This document shows positions 17,995 to 32,045 of a stretch of DNA of 64,000 nt, one piece after another. Position 1 is the stretch's first letter. Each line of letters starts with the position of its first letter. Under the pieces are notes generated by a model that had not been told where the DNA came from, ran no database searches, and was given only the letters and a program-made list of their open reading frames with translations. The stretch covers positions 1 to 64,000 of IMG/VR virus record IMGVR_UViG_3300023063_000001; one strand, given 5' to 3'. Made by a program: the position numbers and the translations under genes. Source of the stretch: a virus.

Positions 17995-20181
17995 TTGGAA
18001 AAGAAATTCTTTAAGACCGATTTCATTTGGGATTTGGAAACCTACCCAAATTGCTTTACTTTCGCGGCTGTCTACGCTAATGGTCAAGGTATGCGAGCAT
18101 TTGAAATTAGTGACCGTAAGAATGAAGTTGATGAGATGCTTGAATTCCTACGCAAAGTTAAAGGCGGAGGATACCGCCTAGTAGGTTTCAACTCTGTTGG
18201 ATTTGATTACCCTATTCTTCACCACATCTTGCAGAAAGCTCGTAAGATTCATGGTACTGACAAGAAACTGAAAGTAACGGCTAAGGAGTTGTTTGATCTA
18301 GCACAGAAAACTATTAACTCAAACAAGGAGAATAAGTTTGGCTCTGCTGTCAAAGAAAAGGATGTGATTATCCCACAGGTGGACTTGTTTAAAATTCACC
18401 ACTTTGATAACAACGCTCGCTCAACATCTTTGAAAATGCTTGAATACAATATGCGTTCGACTAATATTGAAGACCTGCCTTATCCAGTGGGCGCTACCTT
18501 GTCAGATGCAGAAAAAGATAACCTAATCAAATACAACAAACACGATGTCATGGAAACACTCAAGTTCTATTGGTATTCTTATGAGAACCTAAAACTTCGT
18601 GCTGATCTGACTGATCAGTTTGGCTTTGACTGTACCAACTTTAATGATACAAAGATTGGTAAAGAGTTGTTTATTCGCACTCTTGAGAAAGAAGCTCCAG
18701 GTAGTTGCTACGTGAAAACAGAATATGGTCGTGAGGTAAGGCAGACCAAGCGAGATAAGATTGTAATTAAGGATTGTTTATTTCCTTATATCAAGTTTGA
18801 TCGCCCCGAGTTTCAAGCCGTACATAAATGGTTTCAGACTCAAATCATCACCGAAACTAAGGGGGTATTCAGTGATTTGATGGAACATCAGTTGGGTGAT
18901 GTTGCTAAATATGCTGAGATGGTTGTAAAGAAAAAGAAATTGTCCGATCCTGCTGGCAAAAAGAATAAGCGTTATATTCCCTCAGAGGATGTGATTACAG
19001 CCTGTAAGAAAGAACAACCTTTGGGTTGGCTTGAGGAAAAGGAGCTAAAGAGTCCTAAGGGTGCTAAGAGTTATTATTGGTGCTGGAATGTAGCTGAAAC
19101 ATTGAACGTAATAATCAATGGTTTTCGCTATGACTACGGCGTGGGTGGTATTCATGGAGCTACACAAGGAACTATTCGTAGCACTGAGAGTCGAAAGATA
19201 CGCACACTTGACGTTGCCAGCTACTACCCTAACATGGCAATCGCTAACCAAATTTACCCTAAACACTTGGGTAAAACGTTCTGCAAGGTGTACTCTGACC
19301 TATATGAACAACGTAAGGCAACACCCAAAGGGTCAGCAGCTAACGCAGCATTAAAGCTTGCTTTAAATGGTGTATACGGGGATAGCAACAATGAGTTCAG
19401 TCCCTTGCTTGATCCAGCGTATACAATGGCGATTACAATCGGCGGTCAGCTTTCCCTGTGTATGCTTATGGAAAAGCTAATTGATAATTGTGATGCGCGA
19501 ATTATCATGTGTAACACTGACGGCTTTGAGTACATCATTGACGTTGATAAATTTGATGAGGCTGATAAGTGGGTGACGTGGTGGGAAGATCTGACCAAAC
19601 TCCAGATGGAAGGCGATTCATATAGTCAAATGTTTATTCGTGACGTGAATAATTACACCAGCATTACAGAGTCCGGAAAAATCAAGCTTAAAGGAGCTTA
19701 TGAATATATGGACTTTGATAAGCTTGGTTGGCACAAGAACCATTCAGCAATGGTAGTTCCTATGGCTGTGAAAGCTCAACTGATTGATGGTGTAGATCAC
19801 GAAGAGTTTATTCGTTTGCATGAGAACAAGTTTGACTTTATGCTGAGGACGAAAGTACCAAGGAGTAGTAGTCTTGCGCTGGTAGTTGATGGTGAGGATA
19901 TTCAACAACAGAATATCTGCCGTTATTATCCAGCAAAAGAAGGTGGTGGTAAGTTGATTAAGCTTATGCCTCCTTTGGTAGAAGGAGGAGAAGTGCGTAG
20001 GTTGGGTATTGATACGGATTGGAATGTTAAGACGTGTAACAACATTCATGACTTCTCTTGGGGAGTTGACTATAAATATTACATTGATCAGGCAGCTAAA
20101 CTTATTGAAGCAGTGTCCGAGGATGTAACTGATAAGCAAGGTAAAAATTGTGAAAGAAGTGTGGAAACCAGTATTGATTAA
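17995..20181 (+). CDS. Family B DNA polymerase (728 aa), TTG start
   Basis: The frame starts at TTG (17995) after CTAGGAGATTTAGC; no better ATG precedes it. N-terminal 3'-5' exonuclease: WDLETYPN (DxE, Exo I, about residues 12-19), GFNSVGFDYPI (Exo II), and YNKHDVMET (Exo III, YxxxD). Polymerase motifs: A LDVASYYPN, B KLALNGVYGDSNN, C MCNTDGFEYI. Motif C is unusual, with N-T-D in place of D-T-D; the second Asp, the essential one, is kept. It is the replicative polymerase. The last 11 codons overlap the HNH gene at 20150. Confidence 0.9.
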   Translation: MEKKFFKTDFIWDLETYPNCFTFAAVYANGQGMRAFEISDRKNEVDEMLEFLRKVKGGGYRLVGFNSVGFDYPILHHILQKARKIHGTDKKLKVTAKELFDLAQKTINSNKENKFGSAVKEKDVIIPQVDLFKIHHFDNNARSTSLKMLEYNMRSTNIEDLPYPVGATLSDAEKDNLIKYNKHDVMETLKFYWYSYENLKLRADLTDQFGFDCTNFNDTKIGKELFIRTLEKEAPGSCYVKTEYGREVRQTKRDKIVIKDCLFPYIKFDRPEFQAVHKWFQTQIITETKGVFSDLMEHQLGDVAKYAEMVVKKKKLSDPAGKKNKRYIPSEDVITACKKEQPLGWLEEKELKSPKGAKSYYWCWNVAETLNVIINGFRYDYGVGGIHGATQGTIRSTESRKIRTLDVASYYPNMAIANQIYPKHLGKTFCKVYSDLYEQRKATPKGSAANAALKLALNGVYGDSNNEFSPLLDPAYTMAITIGGQLSLCMLMEKLIDNCDARIIMCNTDGFEYIIDVDKFDEADKWVTWWEDLTKLQMEGDSYSQMFIRDVNNYTSITESGKIKLKGAYEYMDFDKLGWHKNHSAMVVPMAVKAQLIDGVDHEEFIRLHENKFDFMLRTKVPRSSSLALVVDGEDIQQQNICRYYPAKEGGGKLIKLMPPLVEGGEVRRLGIDTDWNVKTCNNIHDFSWGVDYKYYIDQAAKLIEAVSEDVTDKQGKNCERSVETSID

Positions 20182-20716
20182 AGATGTACATGCACATTAT
20201 GCTGTAAGTAATCACGGACGTGTGTATGATTTGAAGCTAAATAAATACTCAAATTGGGGTGATAATGGAGCGGGATACAAAACCGTCTCATTGAAAACAG
20301 ATAATTACTCACAACCAAGAAAAGTATTTTATGTTCATCGACTTGTCGGATTGATTTTCATTGAGAACCCGAGTAAACTTCCTCAAGTCGGACACAGGGA
20401 CCACAACAGAGAGAATAATCGACAAGATAATTTGTACTGGACAACACCTAAACAGAATACTGCGGATGGTATTCGTGATGGTAAAATCAATGCAAAGAAA
20501 CGTCCTAATACAAAAAAACTGAACAAGGCACAGATCTGTGAAATTGCTTTACTTTCTAGCCAAGGGAAAGGTATAAACGAGATTGCAATTATGTTAGGCT
20601 TTCCCCGTACAACAATTTCTAGTGTATTTAACGGTCGTAGCAATTTTGAATTGTTTGATTTTGCTAGGAAAGAAATTCAAAATAATCCCTTGACCCACCC
20701 ACACAACCATGTATAA
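20150..20716 (+). CDS. HNH homing-type endonuclease (188 aa)
   Basis: 188 aa, GTG start at 20150 inside the polymerase 3' end. N-terminal NUMOD4-like region (EVWKPVLIKDVHAHYAVSNH ... GRVYDL), then the HNH core VGHRDHNRENNRQDNLYWTT (about residues 80-99), then a C-terminal helix-turn-helix (INEIAIMLGFPRTTISSVF) for DNA binding. Such free-standing enzymes cut intron-less or enzyme-less alleles and spread with flanking DNA. It is probably a mobile insertion behind the polymerase gene; its last codons hold the promoter at 20690. Confidence 0.85.
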   Translation: MKEVWKPVLIKDVHAHYAVSNHGRVYDLKLNKYSNWGDNGAGYKTVSLKTDNYSQPRKVFYVHRLVGLIFIENPSKLPQVGHRDHNRENNRQDNLYWTTPKQNTADGIRDGKINAKKRPNTKKLNKAQICEIALLSSQGKGINEIAIMLGFPRTTISSVFNGRSNFELFDFARKEIQNNPLTHPHNHV

Positions 20717-29655: not shown

Positions 29656-30637
29656 ATGAGTAACGCTGGTAAAGAAATGATGAGTCAATCAAAGTTTTAT
29701 ATGGGTTATTCCCGCTGGGATGAAATCAAGGGCGGTTATGAAACATGGGAACAATCAGTTTCCCGTGTAATGGATATGCACCGACAAAAGTATTCTTCTG
29801 TAATGACACCACAGCTTGAAGAGTATATTGCTTTTGCAGAACAAGCTTACAAAGATAAAGTTGTACTCGGCGCCCAACGAGCATTGCAATTTGGTGGTGA
29901 ACAATTATTCAAACACGAAACTCGTATGTACAACTGCTCAGTATCCCATTGTGATCGAGCCACTTTCTTTCAAGAGTGTATGTATCTTCTGCTGTGTGGT
30001 TGTGGTGTAGGCTTCTCAGTACAGTCACACCACATTGCAAAGCTACCCAAAGTTCATAAGCGATATGAAAAGAAAGTAAAAGTATTTCAGGTGCCTGATA
30101 CAATTGAAGGATGGGCTGATGCTTTTGGTGTTCTGTTCAGTAGCTACTTTGTAGATGGTGGTAGCTTTCCTGAATATAAGGGTTGCCAAGTTCACTTTGA
30201 TTTCAATAAGATTCGCCCTAAAGGTGCTTTGATTTCAGGGGGTTTTAAGGCACCCGGACCAGATGGCTTGCGTAGTGCATTAGTTAAGTGTGAAGCTTTG
30301 CTAGAAGCACTAGTTGAGGGTAAGACAGAGGCTGTAAGTGTACCTACCATCACAGCTTACGACTTTGTAATGCATATGTCTGATGCTGTATTAAGCGGCG
30401 GTGTTCGTCGCTCAGCTACAATTTGTATGTTTGATAAAGATGATGATTTGATGTTGAAGGCCAAGACTGGGGATTGGTTTGTTGATAACCCTCAACGCGG
30501 TCGTAGTAACAACAGCGTTATGCTAGTTCGTGATGAACTAAGCCGTGAAGAGTGGGCTAACATCATGAAGTCTGTTAAGGACTTTGGTGAACCCGGTTTC
30601 ATCTTCACAGAGAATAAAGAGTTCTGCTTCAATCCGT
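29656..30637 (+). CDS. nrdJ: Class II ribonucleotide reductase, exon 1
   Basis: Encodes residues 1-327 and the first base of codon 328 after AAGGAGCAACA. It contains MYNCSVSHCDR (the Cys paired with the active-site Cys after turnover), GCGVGFSVQSHH, SGGVRRSATICMF and GEPGFIFTENKEFCFNP. The frame then runs into a stop within the intron. Splicing at 30637/30808 gives 982 + 1238 = 2220 nt, exactly 739 codons plus stop, the same length as the monomeric Lactobacillus enzyme. Adenosylcobalamin-dependent enzymes of this type reduce ribonucleotides to deoxyribonucleotides without oxygen or an iron subunit, so they work aerobically and anaerobically; cobalamin must come from the host. Confidence 0.9.
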
Positions 30638-30807
30638 AAAATTACATGCGGATTTAAAACCTTCTCTGATTGACTTGGAAGCCAAATATAAGGCGACAGG
30701 GCGCAAGGGTAATGCCAGCGTGAGAGACTAAGTGAGAGGGGCACTAAATAGTGTATGCGATAGTCCAGCGCACAGTCAGAACTATATTTGATTACTGACA
30801 GTGTGAG
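30638..30807 (+). ncRNA. Group I intron (170 nt, no ORF)
   Basis: The 5' exon ends AATCCGT and pairs fully with GCGGATT (30648-30654) as P1, placing U-G at the splice site. P7 is GACTA (30726-30730) with TAGTC (30761-30765), P8 is CACT-AAAT-AGTG (30742-30753), and the intron ends in G (30807). Removal restores the frame and the NPCVEIGM active-site motif. Very compact, with no endonuclease inside. Confidence 0.9.
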
Positions 30808-32045
30808 GTGTAGAAATTGGTATGCTTCCAATTGCAGAAAATGGAGACTCTGGTTTTCAATTCTGTAATTTGACAGAACTTAATGGTAGCAAATGTGTGG
30901 ATAAAGAATCTTTCTTTAGGGCTTGTAAAGCCGGAGCTATTCTTGGGACCCTTCAGGCAGGTTACTCAAACTTTAAATACTTGTCAGATGCAACACGTCG
31001 CATTACAGAGAAAGAGGCATTGCTTGGGGTTAGTATTACCGGTTGGATGAACAACCCCGATGTGCTATTTGACCCACAGAATATGATTGATGGGGCCACA
31101 GTTGTAAAAGATATTAACTCTGTTGTTGCTATTTTATTGGGTATCAATCAAGCTGCACGGACAACAGCAGTAAAACCCTCTGGTAATGCTTCTGTAGTAC
31201 TAGGCACAGCTTCAGGTATCCATGGAGAACATAGCCCTAAGTATCTTCGTAATGTACAGATGAACGTAGGAGATGAGGTTACACGCATTATTACAAAGAC
31301 CAACCCTAAAATGGTTGAATCAAGTGTTTGGAGTAGTAATGGAACAGATGTTGTAGTTAGCTTCCCTGTTGAAAGTAAAGAGGGATCTATCTATAAATCT
31401 GATTTGATGGGCGTGAAGCAGCTTGAGTATGTAAAGACAGCACAGCAATATTGGATTGAACACGGTACAAACTATGAGCTTTGTGTTGACCCTGATCTTC
31501 GTCATAACGTAAGTAATACCATCACAGTTGATGATTGGGATGAGGTTGAGGAGTATATCTACAACAACCGTAAATGGTTTGCTGGTATATCCCTTCTCAG
31601 CTCTATGGGGGATCGCGCATATGCTCAAGCTCCATTCACAGAAGTATTCACTGCACAACAGATTGTTGATATGTATGGTGATAGTTCAATGTTTGCATCT
31701 GGTTTGATTGTAGGTGCATTACAAGCTTTTGGTAACAATTTGTGGATGGCTTGCGATACTGCATTGGGATATGGACTTAAACTTGACCCTGAAGATTCAT
31801 CAGACCTTTTAAAGCGTGATTGGGTACGACGTATCAAGAAGTTTGCTGAACGAAACTTTGAAGGTGATACTATGAAGCTTACGTTTATGCTTAAAGATTG
31901 TCATAATCTTCATAAGTGGGTGGGAATCAATAATAACTTTATTAATGTGGATTTCTCACAAGATTTGTCTCAGCAAAGCTATACAGAAGTTGATACAATG
32001 GGTAGCCAAGCCTGCGCAGGGGGTGTCTGCGAGATAAGCTTTTAA
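30808..32045 (+). CDS. nrdJ: Class II ribonucleotide reductase, exon 2
   Basis: The last two bases of codon 328 (Cys) to the stop; reads VEIGMLPIAENGDSGFQFCN. Cys328 in NPCVEIGM is, by family comparison, the thiyl-radical cysteine that starts catalysis. The C terminus ends QACAGGVCEISF, two Cys five residues apart, matching the redox pair that reloads the active site (C731/C736 in the Lactobacillus enzyme). TVKPSGNASVVLGTASGIHG is the conserved phosphate-binding loop region. An independent ATG at 30822 is an artefact of the interruption. Confidence 0.9.

What the first reader, a model, noticed from the sequence alone, without database searches (positions are those of the whole stretch)
29656..32045. 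Group I intron splits the radical-cysteine codon of a class II ribonucleotide reductase
Seen: a 170-nt insert (30638-30807) with a perfect P1 pairing to the 5' exon, a P7 and P8 of group I type and a terminal G. Its removal leaves 2220 nt, exactly 739 codons plus stop, and recreates NPCVEIGM. From family knowledge, that Cys is the thiyl-radical residue; the intron interrupts its codon after the first base. It is very short, has no endonuclease, and sits at the most conserved site in the gene. The three free-standing HNH enzymes could have moved it.
Basis: partly seen in the sequence, partly recalled or inferred. Interest (0 to 1): 0.8.

Follow-up and report, generated by a model that had tools for sequence, protein, structure and literature searches.

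The report
Self-splicing intron splits phage RNR codon
A 170-base RNA insert that should cut itself out interrupts the codon for the essential radical cysteine of a virus's DNA-building-block enzyme; the same kind of insert, as well as unrelated introns and inteins, keeps landing at or within a few bases of that codon in very different viruses.

Summary
Bases 30638-30807 are a 170-nt group I intron. Removing them joins 29656-30637 and 30808-32045 into a 739-aa B12-dependent (class II) RNR; the split residue, Cys328, aligns with Cys408 of the solved L. leichmannii enzyme. A covariance model built without any intron from this site finds it as the only hit in 64 kb (105.9 bits, E 2e-24). Helices covary across 63 relatives; P1 pairs with the 5' exon; a 6-bp P10 covaries with the 3' exon. 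Thirteen close relatives (82-96% aa) are uninterrupted. Unspliced mRNA stops at the junction, and neither half encodes Cys328 or Glu330.

New: it belongs to a large compact phage intron lineage that Rfam's group I model missed in every copy tested. Its RNR-site form occurs in 37 other viral contigs at the same codon, in monomeric and dimeric class II RNRs, some with GIY-YIG genes, and in cultured phage CRP-118, unrecognised there. A second kind of intron and inteins hit the same codon. The HNH mover idea is not supported: a 78% homologue sits in an intronless relative. Splicing itself is inferred. The kind is known; lineage and site pattern look undescribed.

The parts
29656..30637 (+). nrdJ exon 1 (327 codons plus first base of Cys328)
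   Evidence: TIGR02505/phrog_367; uninterrupted relatives; dN far below dS
30638..30807 (+). group I intron, 170 nt, no ORF; terminal (omega) G at 30807
30808..32045 (+). nrdJ exon 2 (rest of Cys328 to stop)
30631..30637 (+). P1 5' strand in the exon, AATCCGT
   Evidence: pairs with 30648-30654
30648..30654 (+). internal guide sequence GCGGATT (P1 3' strand)
   Evidence: pairing kept in all 16 aligned site introns
30642..30647 (+). P10 5' strand TTACAT, pairs with 3' exon GTGTAG 30808-30813
   Evidence: 6 bp; covaries across 18 site introns, 69 vs 44 paired, 0 of 5000 shuffles
30637..30639 (+). in-frame stop TAA formed at the 5' splice site in unspliced RNA
   Evidence: immediate stop in 37 of 46 site introns
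30660..30666 (+). P3 5' strand (partner 30734-30740)
   Evidence: all 7 pairs covary, 98.4% paired
30674..30677 (+). P4 5' strand (partner 30697-30700); P5 is 30681-30683 with 30692-30694
30701..30721 (+). P6 (30701-30704 with 30718-30721) and P6a
   Evidence: 5 of 6 pairs covary, 99.5% paired
30724..30730 (+). P7 5' strand with bulged A30725 (partner 30761-30766)
   Evidence: 100% paired, two covarying pairs
30734..30740 (+). P3 3' strand
30742..30753 (+). P8 hairpin; place where sibling introns carry GIY-YIG genes
30761..30766 (+). P7 3' strand
30771..30803 (+). P9 hairpin (CAC-A-GTCAG / CTGAC-A-GTG)

Best explanation
A compact, endonuclease-less group I intron sits in the coding sequence of a phage monomeric class II (B12-dependent) ribonucleotide reductase, inside the codon of the thiyl-radical cysteine (Cys328, equivalent to Cys408 of L. 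leichmannii RTPR). In the transcript, P1 pairs the last seven exon bases with the guide sequence. Guanosine bound in P7 should cut after U30637; the exon 3'OH should then attack after G30807 with P10 holding the 3' exon; the joined mRNA encodes the active enzyme. Unspliced mRNA stops at the junction (CCG TAA) and yields a 327-aa fragment lacking Cys328 and Glu330, so all activity depends on splicing. The intron belongs to a horizontally spread phage intron lineage whose RNR branch is tuned to the NP-C-x-E codons. Some members carry a GIY-YIG endonuclease gene in P8. This copy lacks one and was probably acquired by homing or recombination with an endonuclease-bearing or helper element. Shown: anatomy, covariation, homology, recurrence at the site. 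Inferred: splicing and mobility.
For: Exact ORF restoration. Thirteen relatives at 82-96% aa identity uninterrupted at the site. Independent covariance model 105.9 bits, no hit in the 15 intronless relatives searched. Covariation: 96.5% of cells paired vs 80.4% shuffled, 285 vs 70 double-changed cells, slid controls about 40%. P1 of 6 bp or more with U.G in 68 of 88 family members vs about 18% of shuffles. P10 covaries with the 3' exon. 37 of 38 IMG/VR contigs with this guide and core lie at NP|C-x-E of RNR genes. Cys328 aligns with residue 408 of 1L1L. GIY-YIG genes in P8 of siblings. Cultured pair: CRP-118 with intron, CRP-403 without. dN much below dS in both exons.
Against: No RNA data. 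Folding energy alone is unremarkable (z about -1.8). Rfam's group I model does not recognise it. Mobility of this copy is not shown: no clear co-conversion tract next to the intron. Low dN/dS reflects mostly history before the insertion.
Confidence: 0.94

Rival explanations
1. Gene in pieces: the two ORFs are translated separately and assemble into a working enzyme without splicing, as with Aeromonas phage Aeh1 nrdA.
For: Two open ORFs exist; database records annotate the CRP-118 and KLEP7 copies as two RNR genes; a split but functional phage RNR is known (PMC3653736).
Against: Neither ORF encodes the radical cysteine or the catalytic Glu330: ORF 1 ends at Pro327 with a stop, ORF 2 starts at 30822 after them. 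The insert has a covarying ribozyme core.
Confidence: 0.02
2. Dead insertion: a degenerated intron in a pseudogene, with the host enzyme doing the work.
For: The intron is short and lacks an endonuclease gene.
Against: All core helices intact including P7, and P10 matched to this gene's own exon; both exons open and about 96% identical to an intact relative.
Confidence: 0.04
3. On mobility only (not an alternative to splicing): the free-standing HNH enzymes of this phage drive collaborative homing of the intron.
For: Three HNH genes in the window, one 2.6 kb upstream; collaborative homing is known in phages (PMC3984707).
Against: A 78% identical HNH lies upstream of nrdJ in an intronless relative, and the relatives with more distant matches to the others lack the intron too; sibling introns have GIY-YIG genes instead.
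Confidence: 0.1

Closest known systems
Group I introns of phage RNR genes (T4 nrdB and nrdD, Twort nrdE, SPbeta nrdE/nrdF; reviewed in PMC3653736, PMC3984707)
   Same: Group I type, protein-coding phage gene, near functionally important residues; stop codon just after the 5' splice site (the last from own knowledge of T4 introns).
   Different: Class II RNR instead of class I/III; inside the radical-cysteine codon itself; 170 nt; core not recognised by RF00028.
CRP-118 nrdJ intron, Roseobacter Autographiviridae phage (OR420741; genome paper PMC11092137)
   Same: Same codon and phase, 84.6% identical over 128 nt, 172 nt, same P1.
   Different: Host protein only 33% identical; not recognised as an intron in the record or the paper (the word intron does not occur in it).
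Introns and inteins of RNR genes coinciding at active sites (SPbeta, 'Lightning strikes twice'; R2 inteins in PMC8772380)
   Same: Different self-splicing elements converge on catalytic residues.
   Different: Here the coincidence is at the class II NP|C codon, seen here as two kinds of intron plus inteins.
Compact Bastillevirinae phage introns (PMC11878797)
   Same: Small phage group I introns, from 173 nt.
   Different: Other genes and lineages; found with Rfam or GISSD models.

Membership tests
Group I intron | P3-P9 core with conserved, bulged P7 and the P3/P7 pseudoknot | tested here: met
   63-sequence covariation, P7 100% paired, P3 98.4%; independent CM E 2e-24
Group I intron | P1 with U.G at the 5' splice site formed with the exon | tested here: met
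   7 bp, 30631-30637 with 30648-30654
Group I intron | Terminal (omega) G and P10 with the 3' exon | tested here: met
   G30807; P10 6 bp, covarying
Group I intron | Guanosine-initiated self-splicing | not testable with these tools
   needs RNA
Rfam RF00028 Intron_gpI | Score above the family's gathering cut-off | tested here: not met
   No match in the window up to E 10; compact copies in L001, L002, L046, L069, L092, L167 also missed at gathering, while the second intron of L046 was found at 92.5 bits
Group I subgroup (IA, IB, IC...) | Subgroup-specific peripheral helices and P7 logo | not tested
   No subgroup models on hand; no P2 seen between P1 and P3 and no P7.1/P7.2 between P7 and P3, so not a typical IA
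Mobile (homing) group I intron | Encodes a homing endonuclease | tested here: not met
   No ORF in this copy; GIY-YIG genes in sibling introns at the same codon
Class II (B12-dependent) RNR, monomeric RTPR type | Full-length homology to RTPR, catalytic N-x-C-x-E, redox and C-terminal cysteines | tested here: met
   Profile of six phage RNRs incl. the window's vs 1L1L E 1.6e-152, Cys328 = Cys408; invariant C94, C347, C730, C735; TIGR02505 is the best NCBIfam model, each half below its whole-protein cut-off

The most novel reading that the evidence does not exclude
An undescribed, abundant lineage of compact phage group I introns, missed by the standard Rfam model, has a branch specialised on the radical-cysteine codon of class II RNRs. 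It spreads among unrelated phages (and into some Lachnospiraceae MAGs) by GIY-YIG homing, and this one codon is a general hot spot hit independently by two kinds of intron and by inteins.
Probability: 0.6. Interest if true: 0.65.

Novelty: new member of a known kind. Interest (0 to 1): 0.52.

Why it matters
It shows that one catalytic codon, which an RNR cannot lose, is used again and again as a landing site by different self-splicing elements across distant phages, so the question of why such elements choose catalytic codons becomes directly testable. It also flags a practical problem: annotation calls these RNRs two genes or truncated, and Rfam's group I model misses the compact lineage, so intron counts in phages and RNR-based virus surveys are probably too low. 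A cultured pair of roseophages (CRP-118 with, CRP-403 without) allows a test at once.

Tried and rejected
Rfam at gathering and permissive thresholds: no hit for the compact introns, so a family model was built instead. Folding energy as proof: z about -1.8, not decisive. Co-conversion tract next to the intron: windows around the site are not unusual in window vs relatives, and in CRP-118 vs CRP-403 8% of windows are as low; dropped. Target-site match: Pro codon CCG in 5 of 42 intronless relatives but in all intron-bearing genes found by the protein search; suggestive, but few independent cases, and intronless CRP-403 has CCG too. HNH co-occurrence with the intron: not found. Plasmid collection: no match. 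L211 carries the same guide in another gene, so the guide pattern is not strictly RNR-specific. L167 has a related intron 4 nt downstream with its guide changed to fit, so two registers exist.

Full report
What was checked. The finding places a 170-nt group I intron at 30638-30807 inside a class II ribonucleotide reductase gene. Joining 29656-30637 to 30808-32045 gives 2220 nt, 739 codons and a stop, with NPCVEIGM restored and the cysteine at residue 328. Thirteen close relatives from IMG/VR (L005-L015, L026, L028; 82-96% amino-acid identity over the whole protein) have the gene uninterrupted and collinear at that point. The insert is therefore real and precise.

The enzyme. NCBIfam, Pfam and PHROGs put the halves in the adenosylcobalamin-dependent RNR family. 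A profile of six phage RNRs including this one matches PDB 1L1L (L. leichmannii RTPR) over its length at E 1.6e-152. In that alignment the split cysteine is residue 408, counted from the printed alignment; by established enzymology that is the thiyl-radical cysteine. N326, P327, C328 and E330, the partner cysteines C94 and C347, and the C-terminal C730 and C735 are invariant among the six.

The intron. Rfam's group I model finds nothing in the window, even at E 10. A blastn search found the same element in Roseobacter phage CRP-118 at the same codon (84.6% over 128 nt) and, more distantly, in the coat gene of a podovirus. The core sequence TGATTGACTTGGAAGCC then pulled 120 viral loci before the scan stopped at its limit, nearly all with the same core in different genes. 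On 63 distinct cores the named P3-P8 structure has 96.5% of cells paired against 80.4% for shuffles and about 40% for slid versions, with 285 double-changed cells against 70. P7 keeps its bulge, and both of its variable pairs covary. A covariance model made from 57 copies, none of them from an RNR radical-codon site, hits the window once, at 30658-30766, with 105.9 bits and E 2.3e-24. Fifteen intronless relatives give no hit. The plain minimum-energy fold of the insert gives P1, P3, P4, P5, P6, P8 and P9 unguided, but its energy is not remarkable against shuffles.

Splice sites. P1 is AAUCCGU with GCGGAUU, U.G at the junction. Across the lineage 68 of 88 distinct copies have such a stem of six or more pairs, against about 18% of shuffled sequences. 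P10 (UUACAU with GUGUAG) was not in the finding. Over 18 introns at this site P10 pairing sums to 69 against 44 when exons are swapped, 0 of 5000; relatedness among the sequences makes this less than a true probability. Since P10 serves only exon joining, this argues for working splicing. In 37 of 46 copies, including this one, an in-frame stop forms at the junction.

Why splicing must happen for activity. Unspliced mRNA is read to Pro327 and stops at CCG TAA. The downstream ORF begins at 30822. Neither piece holds Cys328 or Glu330, so a two-piece enzyme without splicing would lack the radical residue.

How widespread. The guide plus core pattern finds 38 IMG/VR contigs and 3 MAG contigs. By the exon ends, 37 of the 38 are RNR genes read as NP|C-x-E. 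The 5' exons scanned belong to the monomeric RTPR type (TIGR02505) or the NrdJ_Z type (TIGR02504). The exception is L211, in another gene. Two MAG contigs are Lachnospiraceae; the third, labelled Dehalococcoidia, has exon ends identical to those of viral contigs L202 and L206. Five introns checked carry a GIY-YIG gene lying between the two P7 strands, that is in P8. Others, like the window's, are 167-190 nt with no gene. Identity of the host proteins to the window RNR falls to about 24-35% for most, while the intron stays alignable at DNA level: horizontal spread or strong constraint, with spread favoured by patchiness (present in the window phage but in none of 11 relatives; in CRP-118 but not in CRP-403).

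Other elements at the same codon. KLEP7 (L003) has a different compact intron there (only 18 bits with the lineage model). L016/L017 have an intron with a LAGLIDADG gene. L021, L048 and L055 have in-frame inserts at NP|C that read as inteins by their first cysteine and HN-C or SN-C ends (by eye, no domain search was run). L046 has, after the compact intron, a second group I intron that Rfam does recognise (92.5 bits).

Movers. The window has three HNH genes. The nearest has a 78% homologue upstream of nrdJ in intronless L007. The others have only distant matches, in genomes that are intronless. I see no support for them as movers of this intron, though no cleavage test exists.

Literature. Introns in phage RNR genes, their preference for conserved catalytic positions, and intron-intein coincidence are known (PMC3653736, PMC3984707, PMC8772380, PMC2814812). 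The CRP-118 genome paper lists a class II RNR in nine of ten phages and does not mention introns (PMC11092137). I found no report of this lineage or of the class II radical codon as a hot spot; the library is incomplete, and at least one key paper (the Twort nrdE introns) is not held.

Verdict. Real; a group I intron with confidence 0.94, splicing inferred. A new member of a known kind, raised in interest by the recurrence at one catalytic codon and by escaping the standard model.

Noticed in passing
L002:3996-4108 (MW202674.1): A compact intron of the same lineage interrupts the P22-like coat protein gene of Podoviridae ctn9Y15; it is annotated as two coat genes with a small ORF between. Loci L060, L064, L074, L076 and L080 share the same flanking exon sequence.
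   Followed up: partly
L046:1515-2478: Two different group I introns close together in one nrdJ: the compact one at the radical codon, then a Rfam-recognised one with a small ORF (no Pfam match).
   Followed up: partly
L162, L140, L157: Two or three copies of the compact intron core within a few kb of one viral contig.
   Followed up: no
L211:2876-3391: A compact intron with the same AATCCGT/GCGGATT guide in a non-RNR gene, with an Endonuclease VII gene.
   Followed up: partly
L004:2002-2124 (PV062637.1): Copy of the lineage in a Desulfovibrio phage, after an exon that by eye looks like an anaerobic (class III-like) nucleotide reductase, followed by an HNH-like reading frame.
   Followed up: partly
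L214, L216: Compact intron at the radical codon of NrdJ_Z-type RNRs in Lachnospiraceae MAGs; prophage or host gene not resolved.
   Followed up: no
window 17995-20716: DNA polymerase gene directly followed by an overlapping HNH ORF (20150-20716), a typical place for a free-standing endonuclease.
   Followed up: no
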